From Okeania sp. SIO2C9 (GTDB taxonomy: Bacteria > Cyanobacteriota > Cyanobacteriia > Cyanobacteriales > Microcoleaceae): a stretch of 64,000 nucleotides of DNA. Shown here piece after piece: positions 3,758 through 13,278 of this stretch (positions within the stretch are counted from its first letter, which is position 1; each line of letters opens with the position of its first letter). Below the pieces are notes generated by a model, which did not search any database, was not told the origin of the DNA, and saw only the letters and a list, made by a program, of their open reading frames with translations. The stretch is taken from NCBI RefSeq assembly GCF_010672455.1, contig NZ_JAAHGO010000022.1, forward strand, positions 1 through 64,000, given 5' to 3'. Position numbers and translations under genes: made by a program.

Positions 3758-4933
3758 TTATTTGCCTCAAGATACTGAAATTTTCTGCTGAAATTCAAGA
3801 AAATTTATTCACATAAAATTGCCGAAACCTTTGCCTGTTATCCCCATCTCTGCGTCCCCGCGTCTGGTGTCTCCCCGTGTCCTACCCCCACCAACCAATT
3901 TTTTCAGCAGACCCTAATTATGTGTGCTACTGTCTAGTTCATTCTCAGACAAAACCAGAGCAACAAACTAATCTTAGTTCTTGAGCATAAGCGATCGCTA
4001 AATGAGTAGTACAAGTTCTTTCTAATAACTGTATTTCTCAATAATTTAAAGATTAATACTTTGATACTTTCCACCACTGAGTTTTTATTTAATTTTAGTT
4101 AATTATCTCATGGTATGTTAATAAGATTATCGACAAAAACAATCACTAGACAGGGAAATGTTTTTCCCACTTTTGCCTGTTCCCTGCTATATGAGAAATA
4201 ATACATTAATCAAATAAGGTGTTAAGTAATAGTAGAAAAAATCAATCGTTTCTCCCAATATCATATTAATTTAATTGTGCTATTTCTACTACTTCTATCG
4301 GATAAACTGAACTATAAGTCATATTACTCATAGGTCAGAAGATGTTAAATATTCAGTTATTCTATTTTTGATTCTCTGTTTTCTTTTTTTTAATTTAAAA
4401 CCTCAACAATATACTCTATTATCTTTAAAATTATCTAATATTTTATCTTTTCTTTAAAATTTACCACAACTAAAAATTTGTCAATAAATCAAATCAGAAA
4501 ATCAATCTAAATTTTTTGGAAAAAATCTTATATTATACTAAAATGTTTTAGATTTGGTATAGAAATAAATTCAAATAATGAAACTTAATATCTATGAAAG
4601 GTAATCAAATGGGTGTATTATTAAAACATAAAAAAACTACCAGATATAAGCTGAAGTAATCCTGATACTAAATGAAAAGTAAGCTAAAAATAGAGCTTTT
4701 TACCAGAATATGGGAACTGAATTAATTCTTAAAAAGCCCTTTCATTAATGGATAATAGATAATTGATAATTACATCTGGTTAAAACCGTTACGGAATTGA
4801 ATATAAGGAATATTTTCTTCTTTTTTTCCTTAAAAAGCGAGGGTTGAAACCATAATTATTTAATTATTAATTATTCGGTAAATTATGCTTTGATTGTTGT
4901 CAATAAATCGTCAGATTACCAAATTATAGAATT

Positions 4934-7492
4934 ATGCAAGAAGTACACCAAAATCAGAGTACATCGTACACAGAAAAAGTCAAAATTCAAGTAGAAGACG
5001 ATCGTACAGGCACTAGTCTCGATACCATCAAACGAGCGATCGCCGATAACTTATATTATTTACAGGGGAAAGATATAGAATTTGCTACCACCTATAATTA
5101 TTATATGGCCTTAGCATATACAGTACGCGATCGCTTGTTGCATCGTTGGCTCAAAACCACAAAAACATACTTCCATCAAAACGTCAAAACAGTATACTAT
5201 CTCTCAGCCGAATTTCTCATGGGTCGCCAACTAGCAAAAAACCTAGTCAATGTAGGTTGTTGGGAAGTCGCGAGTCAAGCTCTCGAAGAATCATGTCTTA
5301 AACTTGATGACTTAATCGAAAAAGAACCAGAACCCGGTTTAGGCAATGGTGGTTTAGGTCGTCTAGCAGCTTGTTTCCTCGACTCTCTCGCCACCCTAGA
5401 AATTCCCGCAGTAGGCTACGGTATACGTTATGAATTTGGCATTTTCAAACAACAAATTCAAAACGGCTATCAAGTTGAACAACCAGACAAATGGTTAAGT
5501 CTAGGCAACCCTTGGGAAATTCCTCGCCATGAAGACCAAGTAGAAATTAAATTCGGCGGTTACACAGAAGCATACCCAGACAAACAAGGCAATTATCGGG
5601 TTAGATGGATACCTGCACGCACAGTCATTGGAATGCCCTATGATACTCTTGTTCCTGGATACAATACCAACACAGTCAATACTCTACGCCTCTGGAGTGC
5701 CAAAGCAAGTAATGAATTTGACCTGCAAATTTTTGACTCCGGTGACTATAACCGCGCCGTCGAAGACAAAACTTTCTCTGAAAATATTTCCAAAGTTCTC
5801 TACCCCAACGATAATATATTTCAAGGCAAAATGTTGCGCTTAGAGCAACAGTATTTCTTCGTCAGTTGTTCTCTCCAAGATATCATTCGTACTCACTTGT
5901 CACGGAATCCAAATTTAGACAATTTTCAGGAAAAAGCAGCCATTCAGCTCAATGATACTCACCCCTCTATAGGAGTTGCTGAATTAATGCGCCTGTTAGT
6001 AGATGAGCATGATATGGAGTGGGAAAAAGCTTGGAATATTACTCAAAATACCTTTGGCTATACTAACCATACATTGCTATCCGAAGCTCTAGAACGTTGG
6101 CCAGTTAGTATGTTCGCAACTCTGCTACCACGACATCTCGAAATTATTTATGAAATTAATTTCCGTTTCCTAGAAAAAGTCAAGAAACGTTATCCGGGAG
6201 ATGATGGGCGGTTGGCACGGATGTCACTGATCGAAGAATTTCCTGAAAAACGCGTGCGAATGGCTCATTTAGCTTGTGCTGGCGCTCATGCTATCAATGG
6301 TGTGGCAGCATTACATACTCAACTGTTGAAAACAGATGTTTTGAGAGATTTCTACGAATTGTGGCCGGAGAAATTTACGAATAAAACTAATGGTATTACT
6401 CCTCGTCGTTGGTTGTTAATTAGTAACCCGAAATTGGCATTACTAATTACAGATAAAATTGGCAAAAATTGGATTAAAAACTTAGAGGAAATTAAGCAGC
6501 TTGAGCGGTTTATTGATGACCCTGAATTTCGCAATAATTGGAGGCAGATTAAACATGAAAATAAACAAGATTTAGCTGCTTATATTTACCAAAAGACAGA
6601 AATTGTAGTTAATCCTAATTCTCTGTTTGATATTCAGGTAAAACGACTCCATGAATATAAGCGTCAACTGTTGAGTGTGCTGCATATTATTACCCTTTAT
6701 AATCAAATTAAACAGAATCCAGATGTAGATATTTTGCACCGCACTTTCATTTTTGGCGCGAAGGCAGCACCAGGTTATTATATGGCAAAATTAATCATTA
6801 AATTGATTAACGCTGTAGGGGAAATCGTGAATAATGACCCAGATGTGCGCGATCGCCTCAAGGTAGTTTTTGTGCCTAATTTCTCTGTATCTATCGGTCA
6901 GCGAATTTATCCAGCAGCCGATCTTTCTGAGCAAATTTCTACTGCTGGAAAAGAAGCTTCTGGTACTGGCAATATGAAATTTTCCCTAAATGGCGCTTTA
7001 ACTATTGGTACTCTTGATGGAGCAAATATTGAGATTCGCGAAGCTGTTGGTGCTGAAAATTTCTTCCTATTTGGATTGAATGTTGAAGAAGTTAAAGCAT
7101 TAAAATATCAAGGATATAATCCGGAGCAATACTATACTTCTAACCAAGAATTACGGCAGGTTATTGACCGTATTGCTTCTGGTTATTTCTCCCCTGGCAA
7201 ACCAAATTTATTCCAGCCAATTGTAGAATCTTTACTAGGAAAAGATGAATATATGTTGTTTGCTGATTATCAAGCTTATATTGATTGTCAGGAAAGAGTT
7301 AATCAGGCTTATCGTAACCCCGAATATTGGACTCGGATGTCGATTATTAACTCTATTAATATGGGCAAATTTTCCGCTGACCGTACTATCAATGAATATT
7401 GTCAGGAAATTTGGAATGTCGAACCTGTGAAAATTGATATGGAAGCATATAGTCAGGAAACAGCAGGTTTACAACGTTATTGTCAAATTTAG
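4934..7492 (+). CDS. glgP: Glycogen/alpha-glucan phosphorylase
   Basis: An 852-residue GT35 phosphorylase. It releases glucose 1-phosphate from glycogen, the main cyanobacterial carbon store, and acts in the cytosol. Family landmarks are [13 protein letters not shown] near the N-terminus, [43 protein letters not shown] and [14 protein letters not shown]. The last carries the pyridoxal-phosphate lysine, about K682. Length and ends are normal, so the enzyme should be functional. The ATG at 4934 precedes a short non-conserved N-terminal extension. It stands alone, with non-coding repeat DNA on both sides. Confidence 0.97.
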
Positions 7493-7718
7493 CGTCTTCA
7501 ATAGATATAACAAACCTAGATTGAAAACCGCTGTAAGTGTCAGTATGGGTTTGTTAGATCATGTCCTCTTGAATACTTATATAGCAGTCGCCAAGACGCT
7601 TGGGACATAAAGGACAAACATAGCGTTGGGGCAGTAAATGCGGCAGCTATATCTCCTCATTGAGATGGTCTAATAATTTGATCTTTTCTCTGTCCTAACG
7701 CTTTGACAGTTGCTATAT
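7493..7718. other. Non-coding spacer before the tandem array
   Basis: No gene seen. The segment 'tatatagcagtcgccaag' near 7579 resembles 'gatatagcagttgtcaag' just after the array at about 8655, so the array may have grown inside a pre-existing repeat. Confidence 0.4.
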
Positions 7719-8657
7719 TTTCCCTCCACACACCTCATAATTCTGGTGCTTGAAAAAATGAAATGACTATTGCGACATCCGCAACAAACAGAGGAAGTAG
7801 ATATTTTTCCTCCACACACCTCATAATTCTGGTGCTTGAAAAAATGAAATGACTATTGCGACATCCGCAACAAACAGAGGAAGTAGATATTTTTCCTCCA
7901 CACATCTCATAATTCTGGTGCTTGAAAAAATGAAATGACTATTGCGACATTCGCAACAAACAGAGGAAGTAGATATTTTTCCTCCACACACCTCAAATTC
8001 TGGTGCTAAAAAAAATGAAATGACTATTGCGACATCCGCAACAAACAGAGGAAGTAGATATTTTTCCTCCACACACCTCAAATTCTGGTGCTAAAAAAAA
8101 TGAAATGACTATTGCGACATTCGCAACAAACAGAGGAAGTAGATATTTTTCCTCCACACACCTCAAATTCTGGTGCTAAAAAAAATGAAATGACTATTGC
8201 GACATTCGCAACAAACAGAGGAAGTAGATATTTTTCCTCCACACACCTCAAATTCTGGTGCTAAAAAAAATGAAATGACTATTGCGACATTCGCAACAAA
8301 CAGAGGAAGTAGATATTTTTCCTCCACACACCTCAAATTCTGGTGCTAAAAAAAATGAAATGACTATTGCGACATTCGCAACAAACAGAGGAAGTAGATA
8401 TTTTTCCTCCACACACCTCAAATTCTGGTGCTAAAAAAAATGAAATGACTATTGCGACATCCGCAACAAACAGAGGAAGTAGATATTTTTCCTCCACACA
8501 CCTCATAATTCTGGTGCTTGAAAAAATGAAATGACTATTGCGACATTCGCAACAAACAGAGGAAGTAGATATTTTTCCTCCACACACCTCATAATTCTGG
8601 TGCTTGAAAAAATGAAATGACTATTGCGACATTCGCAACAAAGAGAGGAAGTAGATA
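7719..8657. repeat. Tandem array: 11 copies of an 85/86-bp unit
   Basis: CCTCCACACA recurs at about 7723, 7809, 7895, 7981, 8066, 8151, 8236, 8321, 8406, 8491 and 8577. Units 1-3 and 10-11 (86 bp) contain TAATTCTGGTGCTTG. Units 4-9 (85 bp) contain AAATTCTGGTGCTAA. Each unit holds a small inverted repeat, TTGCGACATYCGCAA, with a C/T polymorphism. The periods are not both multiples of three, so open frames across it are not a repeat protein. Confidence 0.95.
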
Positions 8658-8850
8658 TAGCAGTTGTCAAGGCGCTTACAGCACTTTTGAAGATAGTGAA
8701 GTACAGCTATAAGACTATTTATTCCTGTATTTTCTGTTGCCTGTTCCCAGATCCGGTGTTCCCTAGAGCAATAAAACTTTGTACCTCTTTTCTTTGAAAA
8801 TCTATTCAACTATTTAGTCTAAATTCCAGTACTCAGAATTCAATTGTTAT

Positions 8851-8880
8851 AAAAAAGCACCTATAGTTTTATAGGTGCTA
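8851..8880 (-). terminator. Rho-independent terminator after the first double-glycine peptide gene
   Basis: On the minus strand AGCACCTATA pairs with TATAGGTGCT around a four-base loop (10-bp stem), followed by a run of T. It lies about 55 bases downstream of the peptide stop at 8935. Confidence 0.85.
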
Positions 8881-8934
8881 AATTTAATTCAACTATAAAT
8901 TAAACTTAAAAAGTTGTAATTATATAGCTAATTC

Positions 8935-9138
8935 TTAGTAGCAATCATAACGTCTATAGCTGTAACGTACAGGACGACTATAGTGATAACTACGGTAGTG
9001 ATAACTAACAGGGCGACGATAATAACGTCGAGAACGACCATAACCGTAACAATCATCGAAATTATGACCACCATTAATAGTGGCAGATTCTTCGGAAGAA
9101 AGCTCAGAAAATAATTCAGTGTTTTGAGTTTCTTGCAT
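8935..9138 (-). CDS. Double-glycine leader peptide with Tyr/Arg-rich core (peptide 1)
   Basis: A 67-residue peptide. The leader LFSELSSEESATINGG ends in a double glycine, the cleavage signature for C39-peptidase ABC exporters. The predicted 43-residue core has 12 Tyr and 10 Arg, contains RPVRYSYRR, and ends in DCY. The start ATGCAAGAA follows a GAGGATAATATT ribosome-binding region, which is almost repeated in the two sister genes. A strong terminator follows. No bacteriocin-maturation enzyme is nearby. It could be a secreted peptide, a bacteriocin-like product or a modified peptide; the function is unknown. Confidence 0.8.
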   Translation of the reverse strand: MQETQNTELFSELSSEESATINGGHNFDDCYGYGRSRRYYRRPVSYHYRSYHYSRPVRYSYRRYDCY

Positions 9139-9287
9139 AATATTATCCTCTTGATTAATTGTGTTTACAAGATAGTTAAAAATTATCGATATCTATTTAA
9201 CTATCTTGTTGCTTCTAATTGTATTTTTCGTTGCTGAACTCCAGCATCAGGATATTTTTTTTTGATTAGCGACTCCTTAGAGCTTGC

Positions 9288-9312
9288 TAAAAAGCACTTT
9301 AAAAATGCTTTT
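9288..9312 (-). terminator. Possible terminator after the second peptide gene
   Basis: Minus-strand AAAAGCA pairs with TGCTTTT across a short AT loop and is followed by T residues. It lies about 22 bases past the stop of the peptide gene at 9335. The stem is weaker than the one at 8851. Confidence 0.5.
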
Positions 9313-9334
9313 GAATTCAACTCATAAGTTGAAA

Positions 9335-9523
9335 TTAGTAGCAGTTAGACCTATAGCCATAATAGCGACGACGGGAGTAGTAACGTACAGGCCGACTACG
9401 GTAATAACGACGATAGCCATAACTATAATACCGACGACCATAATAGCCATGACCACCATTAATAGTGGCAGATTCTTCTGAAGAAATTTCAGTAAAGAGT
9501 TGATTATTTTTTGTTTCTTGCAT
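9335..9523 (-). CDS. Double-glycine leader peptide with Tyr/Arg-rich core (peptide 2)
   Basis: A 62-residue paralogue of the gene at 8935. The ATG at 9523 (ATGCAAGAA after a TGAGGAAAATATTC leader) is preferred over an upstream in-frame ATG at 9550, because the ribosome-binding region and first codons match the sister genes. The leader LFTEISSEESATINGG is nearly identical to peptide 1. The 38-residue core has 14 Tyr and 11 Arg, shares RPVRY, and ends in NCY. Leader conserved and core diverged is the usual pattern for exported precursor peptides. Confidence 0.8.
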   Translation of the reverse strand: MQETKNNQLFTEISSEESATINGGHGYYGRRYYSYGYRRYYRSRPVRYYSRRRYYGYRSNCY

Positions 9524-9829
9524 GAATATTTTCCTCAAGTTTGATGACATTCGTCATGTTTAATAATTCCTATATATAGGAGGAATTACAGTTAAGTATT
9601 CTTCATAAGTTGGTAATATCCGGATAACTATCTACTCCCTCTTTTCTGGATATTCTTAATAGATTCCATAAGAGTTATATTTAAAAGTGCGATTAAAGTA
9701 TTGGAGTTAAAGATTTTTTTGCAGCAGAATAATCAGCACTATATAATAGTACTTCACTACTTGATAACTACTATAAAGTTAAAATTAATTGTGCTTTAAT
9801 CCATAGAGATATAGACACAAAAAAAGACT

Positions 9830-10045
9830 TTAGTAATAGCCTTTGATATTTCCTTTATAGTAATTATAATTAGAACGTTGGTAGTCATAAGAGTAGCGGT
9901 TATCACCATAATAACTACGAGGACAAAGTTGAAAACCTAAAAAATTACGGCGATATTGATAATTTTCATTATAACCACCATTTATATAGGTAGATTGTTC
10001 ATAATTCAGTTCTGTAAAAAGTTGCTTTTTTTGAGGTTCTTGCAT
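9830..10045 (-). CDS. Double-glycine leader peptide, divergent Tyr/Asn-rich core (peptide 3)
   Basis: A 71-residue third paralogue. The start at 10045 (ATGCAAGAA after ATGAGGAAGTTAATT) matches the other two; an in-frame ATG at 10060 is less likely. The leader LFTELNYEQSTYINGG has changed more than in the others. The core is 47 residues with 13 Tyr, fewer Arg and more Asn, one Cys (QLCPRSYYG), and ends GYY. It may be an older duplicate or have a distinct target. Confidence 0.72.
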   Translation of the reverse strand: MQEPQKKQLFTELNYEQSTYINGGYNENYQYRRNFLGFQLCPRSYYGDNRYSYDYQRSNYNYYKGNIKGYY

Positions 10046-10830
10046 AATTAACTTCCTCATGATTAATAATTTTAATTAAATAGTTGTAATCTTTAGCTGA
10101 GTTCTAGAATGTATGAAGGAATGGTACTCGATCATTCCCAAATAATCTGTAGTGTCCGGAGTTTTGTATACTTCGACGATCAGGTTATTGTGAAGTATTG
10201 ACTTTAATCCTAATTTCTTCAAGTTTTCATTCTATCCGGATTAAGTTGAAACAAATCTGCAAAAATTATTAGAGAATAAATTATATACGGCAGTTATAAA
10301 TGATTTTTCATACCAAATTTAAAAAACAATACTATCTACATTTTTTGTAGAGGATTTGTATACAACACCCCTACTACTCATTACTTTATATAGCAATTAT
10401 CTAAATAATTTGTCAGAAATTCCCAGTAAAATCAACAATCTGAAACTCTTGCGACCTATTTCCCTTTTTTTAAGATATTTTTTATCTTTTTATTTTAGGT
10501 TTAATATCCCACCGTCTACACGGTGTTTACAATTGGTTGGGGTTTGAGTCCCCATCCATTTTTTCTTCCTTCTTCAAGAAATTATACTCATGACTACGAA
10601 TAGACATTTAACTAGATAAAATTGCTACAAAATATTGGACTTTAACCAGAAAGTCAAGTTGTTAACACAAATATGATTAAGGTCGTTAACAAAAGTAGCT
10701 CATCTCTCAATTTAGCCTCAAAATAATTATCGTTGTTAGGCTTCCTTTGCGTATTAGATATTAGGTCATGCGGTCAGCTTTTTCACCTAAAACCTACCAC
10801 CTTCTTTAACTTAGTAAGTGAATATCAATT
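10046..10830. other. Non-coding region between peptide genes and the HlyD gene
   Basis: AT-rich, with no credible gene. It must contain divergent promoters for peptide 3 and the HlyD gene, but no clear -35/-10 pair can be named. A CACCGTctacACGGTG hairpin lies near 10509-10524. Confidence 0.5.
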
Positions 10831-11910
10831 ATGTTAAATAATTCTGATTATGTAGAACTACAACCTCTAGAAAGTGATGAATTTCTCCCTCCTCTAAGTC
10901 CTTGGAGCAAAATAGGAGGAATGTTTTTAGTAGGAACATTTGGTGTCGCTATTGCTCTAATGAGTGTAGTCAAGTACAATCCTACTGTAAGAACTGAAGC
11001 AATTGCTCGCCCAACAGGAGATGTAAGAATTGTTCAGGCGCTTACAGAAGGTAAAGTTGAAAGTGTAGAAGTAAATGAAAATCAAGCTGTTGAAATGGGA
11101 GATGCGATCGCACGCATAGATGAATCTGCACTTAATCGCCAAAAAAATCAACTACAGGAAAAAATTAAACAGTGTGAGGTAGAATTAGAACAGATAAATC
11201 AACAAATTTCTGCTCTAGAAGTTCAAATTTTAGCTACCGCGAAACCTCAGACTTTTCAGAAATCTAAATCAAGTACAACAGCAAATAATAAAATAGATAA
11301 TGCATCTGTGGAGTCAGCCATTTTAGATTTATCTAAATCTTTACCTACAGTTGCTCAACAATTTGCTAAGGATCGACGAGACCTAATTGTGAAGCGGACA
11401 AAATTAATTAAAGATTTGACTACAGGTACTAGAGAACTAGAAAAAGTAGATATTAAACTTGATAATAGTGTAATTCGAGTCCCTGTAGATGGTACTATCT
11501 TTCAGCTATCTTTGCGTAATCCTGGGCAAACTGTAGAGTCAGGAGCAGCGATCGCTCAAATTGTTCCTAGTAATGCACCTTTAGTATTTAAAGGTAGAGT
11601 AACAGCAGCAGATATTGCTAGGGTAAAAGTTGGTCAACCCGTGCAAATGAGAATTTCAGCGTATCCTTTTCCGGACTATGGTATTCTCAAAGGAACTGTC
11701 AATTCAATTTCTCCAGATGCTATCACCTCAGAAGCACTTCGCGAAGCTTATTATGAAGTGACTATAGAACCTGAAAGACCATACTTAGTTAGGAGCGGTC
11801 GTCAATATCTAATCCAACCAGGAATGGAAGGTCGAGCTGATATAATTTCTTCGCAAGAAACCGTGCTAACTTTTGTTCTCAGAAAAATTAGGCTGTTAAG
11901 CGATTTTTAA
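10831..11910 (+). CDS. HlyD-family periplasmic adaptor (type I secretion)
   Basis: A 359-residue membrane-fusion protein. A cytosolic N-terminus (about 25 residues) precedes one transmembrane helix at about 28-48. A biotinyl-lipoyl half (VESVEVNENQAVEMGDAIARID), a coiled-coil hairpin at about 105-205, the second lipoyl half (IRVPVDGTIFQLSLRNPGQTV) and a beta-barrel domain (FKGRVTAADIARVKVGQPV) follow. Such adaptors link an inner-membrane ABC exporter to TolC. In cyanobacteria they commonly partner C39-peptidase ABC transporters that cut double-glycine leaders, which fits the three peptide genes upstream. No ABC transporter lies in this window, so the partner must be elsewhere. Confidence 0.88.
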   Translation: MLNNSDYVELQPLESDEFLPPLSPWSKIGGMFLVGTFGVAIALMSVVKYNPTVRTEAIARPTGDVRIVQALTEGKVESVEVNENQAVEMGDAIARIDESALNRQKNQLQEKIKQCEVELEQINQQISALEVQILATAKPQTFQKSKSSTTANNKIDNASVESAILDLSKSLPTVAQQFAKDRRDLIVKRTKLIKDLTTGTRELEKVDIKLDNSVIRVPVDGTIFQLSLRNPGQTVESGAAIAQIVPSNAPLVFKGRVTAADIARVKVGQPVQMRISAYPFPDYGILKGTVNSISPDAITSEALREAYYEVTIEPERPYLVRSGRQYLIQPGMEGRADIISSQETVLTFVLRKIRLLSDF

Positions 11911-12555
11911 GTTTTTATTTTCTTTGTGTTGGGCAGAGGAGGATGAGGAGTCAAAAATATTACTAGCGAATAATCTGAAAAATTTTGGTATAATTAATAT
12001 CAATTTTTCTAATAATTTTATAGATTAATTGCTGAGATACTATTTTACACATTTTCCTACTTTTTTCCATAAAGAATTGTTGAAAATACCTCTCTAACAC
12101 CTACTATTTTTTTACATTTATGTTTGACAAATTTATCAGTAAAGTTCAGAAGTAACTTGACAAATAATTTTTTATCTGGATTGAAAATTAAACTCTTTAC
12201 TCTAATTATTGTCTCCTATTTCTAAAAGAATCATTAGGTATAGTACACACTAAAGTTGCAACTTCAACAGTTGTTTTTGTTGAATATTTTAAGTTTAATT
12301 TAATATTTTTCTTGAAGAAAGTAATAAGTGACTAATTTATCTAAAAAAATATACTTTTTTTGACGGGAAATAGTATTTGCCAAGAAATATCAGCATTTGT
12401 GCTTAGATTGTTTTTTTACATTAAAATTAAAATAAATTTAGTAGTTATACTTAAGTATTATTTCTACATTTAGAAAAAGTTTTCCTAGCATTTTCAATAA
12501 TTAGATAGTACAATAAAGGATATAAACCCTACACAACAATAAAAGAAAATTGATA
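11911..12555. other. AT-rich spacer, no features recognised
   Basis: Very AT-rich sequence without open frames, terminators or repeats that I can support. Confidence 0.5.
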
Positions 12556-12924: not shown

Positions 12925-13278
12925 AAATAATTGATTTACTCAACTTTTTGGGAATACTTTGCAAATTATAGATTCAAATGGAAATAACAGATGGGGAACT
13001 GATTTTCTCAGTTCCTCATTTTTGATCGAAGTTTTTTTGAGCGGGAGTGTGGGGAGTGTGGGAAGGGTGGGGAGTGTGGGGAGTGTGGGAAGGGTAGGTA
13101 GTGTGGGGAGTGTGGGAAGGGTGGGTAGTGTGGGGAGTGTGGGGAGTGTGGGAAGGGTAGGTAGTGTGGGGAGTGTGGGGAGTAGTAAACATAATATCCT
13201 TATGATCAGCTAAAAATCACTTAAATTCTATATTCCCTGTTGCCTGTTGCCTGTTGCCTGTTGCCTCTTTGATCTCTA
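12925..13278. other. Spacer with simple tandem repeats
   Basis: Holds the nine-base array at 13043-13183 and about four copies of a TGTTGCC heptamer at 13238-13266, just upstream of the beta-glucosidase start. Confidence 0.6.
13043..13183. repeat. Tandem array of a 9-bp G-rich unit (GTGGGGAGT)
   Basis: About 15 copies of GTGGGGAGT and variants (GTGGGAAGG, GTAGGTAGT). Because the period is nine, one frame stays open as a Gly-Ser-Val repeat. This is a by-product; there is no ribosome-binding site or conserved flank. A shorter version lies at about 54717-54765. Confidence 0.85.

What the first reader, a model, noticed from the sequence alone, without database searches (positions are those of the whole stretch)
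8851..11910. Three double-glycine peptides with Tyr/Arg-rich cores beside a HlyD adaptor: candidate undescribed secreted-peptide system
Seen: three paralogous short genes share GAGGA ribosome-binding regions, the ATGCAAGAA start and leaders ending INGG. Their cores are extremely rich in Tyr (12 of 43, 14 of 38, 13 of 47). The first two are also Arg-rich with RPVRY and end in CY. A HlyD-type adaptor is about 790 bases away. Known: double-glycine leaders are cut by C39-peptidase ABC exporters, which use HlyD adaptors. Inference: this is an export locus for tyrosine-rich peptides that could be redox-crosslinked, membrane-active or signalling.
Basis: partly seen in the sequence, partly recalled or inferred. 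Interest (0 to 1): 0.82.

Follow-up and report, generated by a model that had tools for sequence, protein, structure and literature searches.

The report
Exported tyrosine-rich peptides of marine cyanobacteria
A marine mat-forming cyanobacterium carries small genes for unusual tyrosine- and arginine-rich peptides with an export tag; relatives keep the same genes beside the exporter that should cut and release them, so they are probably secreted, perhaps as surface or matrix material, but their job is unknown.

Summary
In detail: three minus-strand genes with GAGGA sites, ATGCAAGAA starts, INGG leaders and cores with 12/43, 14/38 and 13/47 Tyr. They have orthologues in relatives, and their cores are mostly under purifying selection. 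The missing exporter was found: in the same genome a fourth paralogue lies about 570 bp upstream of a 736-aa C39-peptidase ABC exporter on another contig. In 16 relatives' loci hlyD, peptides and this exporter stand together within 4-8 kb, so the window holds half of a cluster that was split in Okeania. Over 61 family genomes, peptides and full-length cognate HlyD co-occur 44/2/0/15. The machinery is of a known kind: short C39 exporter, HlyD and double-glycine precursors, as in "group III" of Wang et al. 2011. The Tyr/Arg-rich, lysine-poor cores passed no Pfam or NCBIfam cut-off. Function is unproven; I favour secreted surface or matrix material, working like EbfG/PteB of Synechococcus elongatus, over a bacteriocin or signal. 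New variant of a known kind.

The parts
8935..9138 (-). pepA: 67-aa precursor, 24-aa leader ending INGG, 43-aa core (12 Tyr, 10 Arg, 0 Lys, ends DCY)
   Evidence: orthologues; alignments A1 and A4
9335..9523 (-). pepB: 62-aa precursor, 24-aa leader ending INGG, 38-aa core (14 Tyr, 11 Arg, 0 Lys, ends NCY)
9830..10045 (-). pepC: 71-aa precursor, 24-aa leader ending INGG, 47-aa core (13 Tyr, 5 Arg, 2 Lys); blocks FLGFQLCPRSYY and NYYKGN..GYY well conserved
   Evidence: alignment A3
9146..9150 (-). GAGGA ribosome-binding site of pepA
   Evidence: position by reading
9532..9536 (-). GAGGA ribosome-binding site of pepB
   Evidence: position by reading
10054..10058 (-). GAGGA ribosome-binding site of pepC
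   Evidence: position by reading
8856..8879 (-). terminator-like stem-loop with T tail after pepA (10 pairs)
10831..11910 (+). hlyD: 359-aa HlyD-type membrane-fusion adaptor, divergent from the peptide genes; the only strong match to this HlyD alignment in the genome (next best E 1.6e-27)

Best explanation
pepA, pepB and pepC, together with pepD on another contig, are precursors of small secreted peptides. The 24-residue leader (LF(T/S)(E/D)(I/L)S.EESATINGG and variants) is recognised by the C39 domain of the ABC exporter encoded beside pepD. The leader is cut after GG, and the 38-53 residue core leaves through exporter - HlyD (this window) - a TolC-type outer-membrane channel. The HlyD here and the exporter on the other contig are parts of one machine whose genes were separated by a rearrangement in Okeania. 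Outside the cell the Tyr/Arg-rich, lysine-poor, hydrophilic, probably disordered cores most likely serve as surface or extracellular-matrix material that sticks through Tyr-Arg contacts and perhaps Cys or Tyr cross-links, much as the EbfG peptides exported by PteB do in Synechococcus elongatus biofilms. Shown: genes, conservation, selection, linkage and the split. Inferred from established families: cleavage and export (about 0.9). Inferred by analogy only: matrix role (about 0.4). The confidence given is for the whole statement.
For: Export: the own genome has a C39 exporter with a fourth paralogue about 570 bp upstream. It aligns from C39 domain to ATPase with the solved PCAT1 4ry2 (E 6e-108), and the aligned DCGAACL, H(W/F)VV and ADP blocks keep Cys, His and Asp (that these are the catalytic residues is recalled). 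hlyD and this exporter are in one locus in 16 of 33 fetched loci L036-L068 (in three of the 16 the exporter is cut by a contig end). Of 78 loci found by HlyD, 58 hold an exporter and a HlyD, 52 of these divergent, 41 with GG peptides between by my pattern. Peptides and full-length HlyD co-occur in 44 of 61 family genomes, peptides alone in 2, HlyD alone in 0, neither in 15. Split: the two halves lie on different contigs in Okeania, including 668-kb and 528-kb contigs of one genome. One TolC-like ORF is present. Selection: core dN/dS below 1 in 26 of 27 defined comparisons, pepC 0.12-0.21 in all 11. Ten core Tyr columns are invariant among 11 pepA sequences. Matrix: GRAVY -1.45 to -1.95, charge +3.7 to +10.8, 1-5 residues of ILMVAFW per core; AlphaFold2 gives no confident fold (mean pLDDT 46 and 50, 10-row alignments). 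L169 holds five copies with identical cores, as for a product needed in amount. EbfG1 and EbfG2 mature N-termini contain repeated Tyr, and EbfG1-3 form amyloid.
Against: No expression, secretome or phenotype data. The matrix role rests on analogy and composition alone; EbfG sequences were not compared here. High positive charge is equally typical of antimicrobial peptides. Planktonic Trichodesmium also has the genes. pepD shows no third-codon-position excess (123/63/81 changes), so its core is not cleanly under purifying selection; pepB against L050 has core dN/dS 1.2, pepA against L053 and L055 0.72 and 0.6, and several synonymous distances are near saturation. In one Okeania genome (G001) hlyD is cut to 73 codons and pepB is frameshifted, so the system is dispensable there.
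Confidence: 0.42

Rival explanations
1. Cationic bacteriocins: the cores are exported by the same machine but kill or inhibit competing cyanobacteria or heterotrophs, by membrane or intracellular action.
For: Cores carry +3.7 to +10.8 charge. The best family model, below cut-off and in the leader, is called a bacteriocin (NF038167, E 0.016). Wang et al. 2011 call all such clusters bacteriocins, from genome mining, with most products unknown.
Against: No conserved extra gene, such as an immunity gene, beside the cluster among ORFs of 90 aa or more (shorter ORFs were not clustered, so a small immunity gene could be missed). Cores are very hydrophilic and mostly conserved rather than diversifying. 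Not a match to class II (PF10439, 12.7 bits against 27.1).
Confidence: 0.27
2. Signalling peptides: small pheromones that report cell density or trigger differentiation, as PCAT products do in Gram-positive bacteria and as has been proposed for HetC.
For: Same exporter class; HetC is proposed to export a signalling peptide (PMC10986499, abstract and passages).
Against: Three or four long, compositionally simple, paralogous cores per genome are unlike known pheromones (recalled); no regulator gene is conserved beside the cluster among ORFs of 90 aa or more.
Confidence: 0.12
3. Metal-, polyphosphate- or polysaccharide-binding secreted peptides: the Arg/Tyr/Cys cores bind anionic sheath polymers or metals, for nutrient capture rather than structure.
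For: Arg-containing cores with one to three conserved Cys. Genes named CTB family bacteriocin are induced under phosphate limitation in Nodularia (PMC9846622, passages), but these are not shown to be homologues.
Against: No direct evidence; the Nodularia genes were not compared with these.
Confidence: 0.12
4. The ORFs are low-complexity artefacts or relics with no exported product.
For: Cores are compositionally simple; a chimeric frameshifted copy exists (L052); pepB and hlyD are broken in G001.
Against: Orthologues in many genomes, most with open frames, mostly purifying selection, ribosome-binding sites and near-perfect co-occurrence with HlyD.
Confidence: 0.04

Closest known systems
Group III cyanobacterial bacteriocin gene clusters (Wang, Fewer and Sivonen 2011, PMC3140520; text parts 1-3 of 5 read)
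   Same: Short C39-peptidase ABC exporter, HlyD, several double-glycine precursors; one group III cluster listed for T. erythraeum IMS101.
   Different: Cores are of one Tyr/Arg-rich type, not mentioned in the parts read; the paper names Gly, Cys, Ser and Thr as frequent in NHLP/N11P cores. In Okeania the cluster is split in two loci. Whether these exact peptides are in its Table S3 could not be checked.
EbfG1-4 / PteB of Synechococcus elongatus PCC 7942 (PMC4997328 and PMC9981879, passages)
   Same: Four GG-motif peptides, C39 exporter required for efficient secretion, Tyr-containing mature N-termini of EbfG1 and EbfG2; S. elongatus has one group III cluster in Wang's table.
   Different: No biofilm phenotype is known for the Okeania peptides; EbfG sequences were not compared here.
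CTB family bacteriocin, NCBIfam NF038167
   Same: Weak match limited to the leader region (E 0.016).
   Different: 15.4 bits for pepA against a cut-off of 32; 4 of 30 members match at E <= 0.1, best E 0.016.
PCAT1 of Clostridium thermocellum (4ry2) and HlyB/HlyD type I secretion
   Same: Domain order and C39 active-site blocks of the exporter; HlyD adaptor family.
   Different: Gram-positive PCAT1 needs no adaptor (recalled); HlyB has a non-proteolytic C39-like domain (recalled).

Membership tests
Wang 2011 group III cluster | Short-type C39 exporter: C39 + transmembrane + ATPase, no N-terminal nucleotide-binding extension | tested here: met
   736 aa; residues 23-728 align to PCAT1 11-715; located at L051 7762-9972
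Wang 2011 group III cluster | HlyD gene in the cluster | tested here: met
   Same locus in 16 relative loci and in 58 of 78 named loci; but in the window's own genome hlyD is on a different contig from the exporter, so there the cluster is not contiguous
Wang 2011 group III cluster | Double-glycine precursors beside the exporter | tested here: met
   pepD about 570 bp upstream in the own genome; 1-4 between exporter and HlyD in 41 of 58 loci by my pattern
Wang 2011 group III cluster | No additional ABC transporter without a peptidase domain, no SurA, no LanM | tested here: inconclusive
   No third gene family recurs in more than 6 of 34 loci, but these genes were not searched by profile
Wang 2011 group III cluster | Exporter branches in clade III of the C39 exporter tree | not tested
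   No tree with the paper's reference sequences was built
CTB family bacteriocin NF038167 | Score over the curated cut-off (32 bits) | tested here: not met
   15.4 bits for pepA, 12.2 for pepB, none for pepC; 4 of 30 members at E <= 0.1, best E 0.016; none of five more peptides at E <= 0.01
NHLP and N11P (Nif11) precursors | Match to the NCBIfam leader models | tested here: not met
   Only three families were listed for 30 peptides at E <= 0.1, none of them NHLP or Nif11
Class II bacteriocin PF10439 | Score over the gathering cut-off (27.1 bits) | tested here: not met
   12.7 bits, E 0.14, pepA leader only; pepC rings PF14406 (Bacteroidetes peptide) at 15.1 bits against 25
EbfG/PteB biofilm system | Core homology with EbfG1-4 | not tested
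   EbfG sequences were not obtained; the paper states that mature EbfG show no homology to proteins of other cyanobacteria
EbfG/PteB biofilm system | Secretion depends on the C39 cysteine; peptides needed for biofilm | not testable with these tools
   Needs mutants and mass spectrometry

The most novel reading that the evidence does not exclude
Mat- and colony-forming filamentous cyanobacteria (Okeania, Trichodesmium, Microcoleus and kin) share a dedicated exporter for Tyr/Arg-rich disordered peptides that assemble outside the cell, by Tyr-Arg contacts with Cys or dityrosine cross-links, into a protein glue of the sheath or colony matrix: a peptide material system hidden among genes counted as bacteriocins.
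Probability: 0.25. Interest if true: 0.75.

Novelty: new variant of a known kind. Interest (0 to 1): 0.5.

Why it matters
Cyanobacterial GG-peptide clusters are mostly named bacteriocins without a product or activity known. Here one type has a recognisable and conserved core chemistry (Tyr + Arg, little Lys), a defined exporter and adaptor, and occurs in Trichodesmium and in mat builders such as Microcoleus. That makes a direct test possible: look for peptides starting after GG in the sheath or medium. A matrix role would change how the bacteriocin label is read across cyanobacteria; an antimicrobial role would give a new peptide class. The split cluster in Okeania also shows that an orphan HlyD with GG peptides can mark an exporter elsewhere in the genome.

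Tried and rejected
A tRNA-like look of window 10530-10560 came to nothing (ARAGORN 0 genes). Conserved tailoring or cross-linking enzymes beside the cluster: no third family of ORFs of 90 aa or more recurs in more than 6 of 34 loci. Tyrosinase PF00264: no match in the own genome, but no control genome rang either, so this is uninformative. Literature on Tyr-rich secreted cyanobacterial peptides; by titles and abstract starts none of the listed papers describes this core type, but the lists were capped (20 of 168, 20 of 1,587, 15 of 35, 15 of 115), the library is open-access only, and Wang's supplement could not be opened. Structure prediction of pepC and pepA: no confident fold, so no fold search was made. 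dN/dS for pepD was not obtained (script stopped); only codon-position counts exist. A note of mine that pepB of G001 lost its start codon was wrong: one search shows an intact start and a frameshift in an A-run of the leader. Other weak family matches of the 30 peptides (NF006040 in 2 members, best E 0.009; NF002898 in 1) were taken as chance.

Limits of the counts. The HlyD threshold in the 44/2/0/15 table (full length, E at or below 5.5e-115) was chosen after seeing the list; with the search's own cut-off (1e-40) 50 of 61 genomes have a HlyD match, some from other HlyD clades. Some peptide matches cover the leader only (for example G032, G076). The genomes are related, so Fisher's P of 1.9e-12 overstates independence. 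The order-wide search scored at most 15 candidates per genome, so its counts are lower bounds. GG-peptide counts come from a regular expression that misses leaders of other kinds (L115 counts 0 there but shows GG peptides).
Full report
WHAT IS THERE. On the minus strand lie pepA (8935-9138), pepB (9335-9523) and pepC (9830-10045), each with GAGGA 7-8 nt before ATGCAAGAA and a 24-residue leader ending INGG. Mature cores have 43, 38 and 47 residues with 12, 14 and 13 Tyr; Arg 10, 11 and 5; Lys 0, 0 and 2. Against the Tyr frequency of long window ORFs (3.5%) this has binomial probabilities of 2e-8, 2e-11 and 5.9e-9. ORFs with a GG-type leader and at least 20% Tyr in the core: 3 in the window, none in 40 Markov simulations. 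A terminator-like hairpin follows pepA (8879-8856). The HlyD ORF (10831-11910, +) starts 785 bp from pepC and is divergent.

WHOSE GENOME. The window is contig C135 of a 10.88-Mb assembly. So it is very probably an Okeania (Microcoleaceae).

THE MISSING EXPORTER. The own genome has five C39-peptidase matches. One (G000:C24) is a 736-aa exporter with a fourth peptide, pepD, about 570 bp upstream on the same strand; no HlyD match lies in the 18 kb taken around it. The leader of pepD (MQDTQNNELFSDISTEESATINGG) is close to that of pepA. The exporter aligns from residue 23 to 728 with PCAT1 (4ry2, E 6e-108), with the Cys, His and Asp blocks of the C39 domain kept (their catalytic role is recalled). 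The own genome has one strong match to the HlyD alignment, the one in the window (E 4e-202; next 1.6e-27), and one TolC-like ORF, on the same contig C24 as the exporter.

THE CLUSTER IN RELATIVES. Of the 33 loci L036-L068 fetched (six of them from the own genome), all from relatives, hold this HlyD and this exporter together (in L048, L058 and L059 the exporter is cut by a contig end), with one to four GG- or GA-type peptides between, within 4-8 kb. L057 is complete in 6.1 kb: hlyD (282-1406, -), pepC, pepB, pepA, pepD, exporter (4152-6362, +). A scan of a named genome collection with a HlyD alignment kept 78 loci. Of these 78, 58 have an exporter and a HlyD, 52 of 58 divergent, 41 of 58 with GG peptides between by my pattern, 98 peptides in all, 68 of 98 with at least 15% Tyr. 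These include Trichodesmium (L073, L075, L077, L105), another Okeania (L074), Microcoleus, Tychonema and Kamptonema relatives, Phormidium LEGE 05292 (L112, 42-44% Tyr), Microseira (L111) and two UBA genomes (L106, L108). In more distant Nostoc and Calothrix loci the arrangement stays but cores are of other kinds (L115, L118, L140). So leader and machine look old and shared, and the Tyr/Arg core is a type found mainly in Microcoleaceae and a few other families.

THE SPLIT. In the window's genus hlyD+pepA-C and pepD+exporter are at two places. In G002 these are contigs of 528 kb (around 130 kb) and 668 kb (around 547 kb), so this is not a contig-end artefact. The exporter side still shares two downstream neighbours (a patatin-like gene and the next ORF) with the unsplit cluster of L061, so the hlyD side, now beside a glycogen phosphorylase gene, probably moved (inference; gene names are recalled readings of the translations).

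CO-OCCURRENCE. Profile A1 (30 peptides) matches 46 of 61 genomes of the family at E <= 0.001. Full-length HlyD of this clade is in 44 of 61 (threshold set afterwards). Both: 44; peptides only: 2 (G001, G071); HlyD only: 0; neither: 15, of which G063 (74% complete) has a HlyD fragment at a contig end. Fisher P is 1.9e-12 but genomes are related. In G001 hlyD is cut to 73 codons and pepB is frameshifted in its leader, while pepA, pepC, pepD and the exporter have open frames: a decaying copy, consistent with linked function. Over the order, 57 of 388 genomes match at E <= 1e-6, 12 of them outside the family (lower bounds, 15 candidates scored per genome).

SELECTION AND COMPOSITION. Core dN/dS of the window genes against orthologues: pepA 0.11-0.72 (10 pairs, one undefined), pepB 0.16-1.2 (7 pairs), pepC 0.12-0.21 (11 pairs). 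The high values come from close pairs with few changes; several distant pairs have near-saturated synonymous sites. Invariant core Tyr columns: 10 in pepA (11 sequences), 6 in pepB (8), 5 in pepC (12), 6 in pepD (9). Third codon positions change most in pepA, pepB and pepC but not in pepD, which counts against clean constraint there. Mature cores: 5.1-6.3 kDa, pI 9.3-10.2, GRAVY -1.45 to -1.95, charge +3.7 to +10.8. AlphaFold2 on the precursors with 10-row orthologue alignments gives mean pLDDT 46 (pepC) and 50 (pepA): no confident fold; shallow alignments, so this is weak support for disorder.

HOW IT MOST LIKELY WORKS. Shown: the genes, their conservation, their linkage to one exporter and one adaptor. 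From established knowledge of C39 exporters (PMC10986499 passages): cut after GG coupled to export, with adaptor and outer-membrane factor in Gram-negatives. Inferred: the own exporter on C24 serves pepA-C in trans with the window's HlyD. The role outside is open. I favour matrix or surface material. The nearest tested system is EbfG1-4/PteB of S. elongatus: four GG peptides, efficient secretion depending on the C39 cysteine, mature peptides beginning TTYNPPSYPYPSYPK and SGYSIPTYPK (PMC4997328 passages), and EbfG1-3 amyloid-forming and thought to build the biofilm matrix (PMC9981879 passages). The composition here (Tyr and Arg stickers, little other hydrophobic matter, a conserved Cys) fits a sticky disordered material better than a pore former. 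Tandem copies in other cyanobacteria (five identical cores in L169) fit a product needed in quantity. Bacteriocin remains the main rival.

WHAT IT IS AMONG KNOWN THINGS. It works like, and by gene content is, a group III cluster of Wang et al. 2011 (text parts 1-3 of 5 read), except that it is split here; the absence of SurA, LanM and a second exporter was not tested by profile, nor the exporter's place in that paper's tree. It is not a member of the CTB family model, NHLP/N11P or Pfam class II bacteriocin by score. The T. erythraeum group III cluster in that paper's table may be this one; its supplement could not be read. In the papers listed (titles and abstract starts; several lists capped) I saw nothing on this core type.

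VERDICT. Observation confirmed; export interpretation upheld and strengthened; novelty claim reduced to a new variant of a known kind; function open.

Noticed in passing
window 7715-8658: 85-bp minisatellite, 11 copies, 98% matches, between the glycogen-phosphorylase-like ORF and pepA; the same unit gives 14, 7, 6 and 6 hits in the four other Okeania loci L050, L055, L053, L054.
   Followed up: partly
L052 7650-7866 (G000:C261, also G004:C22): Chimeric extra copy: leader like pepB, core like pepA, frameshifted in the core; matched in two Okeania genomes.
   Followed up: partly
L168 6183-9041, L169 5611-8832: Cyanobacteria of another family with six and seven tandem GG peptides with Tyr-rich cores, five cores identical in L169, and no exporter or HlyD match in the stretch fetched.
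   Followed up: no
most of L082-L104, and L126, L132 (Microcoleus and kin), peptide next to hlyD: The hlyD-proximal peptide of these clusters is a different kind: Asn/Ser-rich core ending like LYMYDPSR.RPYKTLVV, 2-8% Tyr, alike across loci by eye.
   Followed up: no
L055 (G001:C223): hlyD reduced to its first 68 matching residues (73-aa ORF) and pepB frameshifted within an A-run of the leader in one Okeania genome.
   Followed up: partly
window 13043-13183: 9-bp tandem repeat GGGAGTGTG, about 16 copies, between the small ORF at 12550 and the beta-glucosidase-like ORF.
   Followed up: no
L176 8018-8227 (G007:C2): Family member with a His/Tyr-rich core (a run of His) between HlyD and exporter: possible metal-binding variant.
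   Followed up: no
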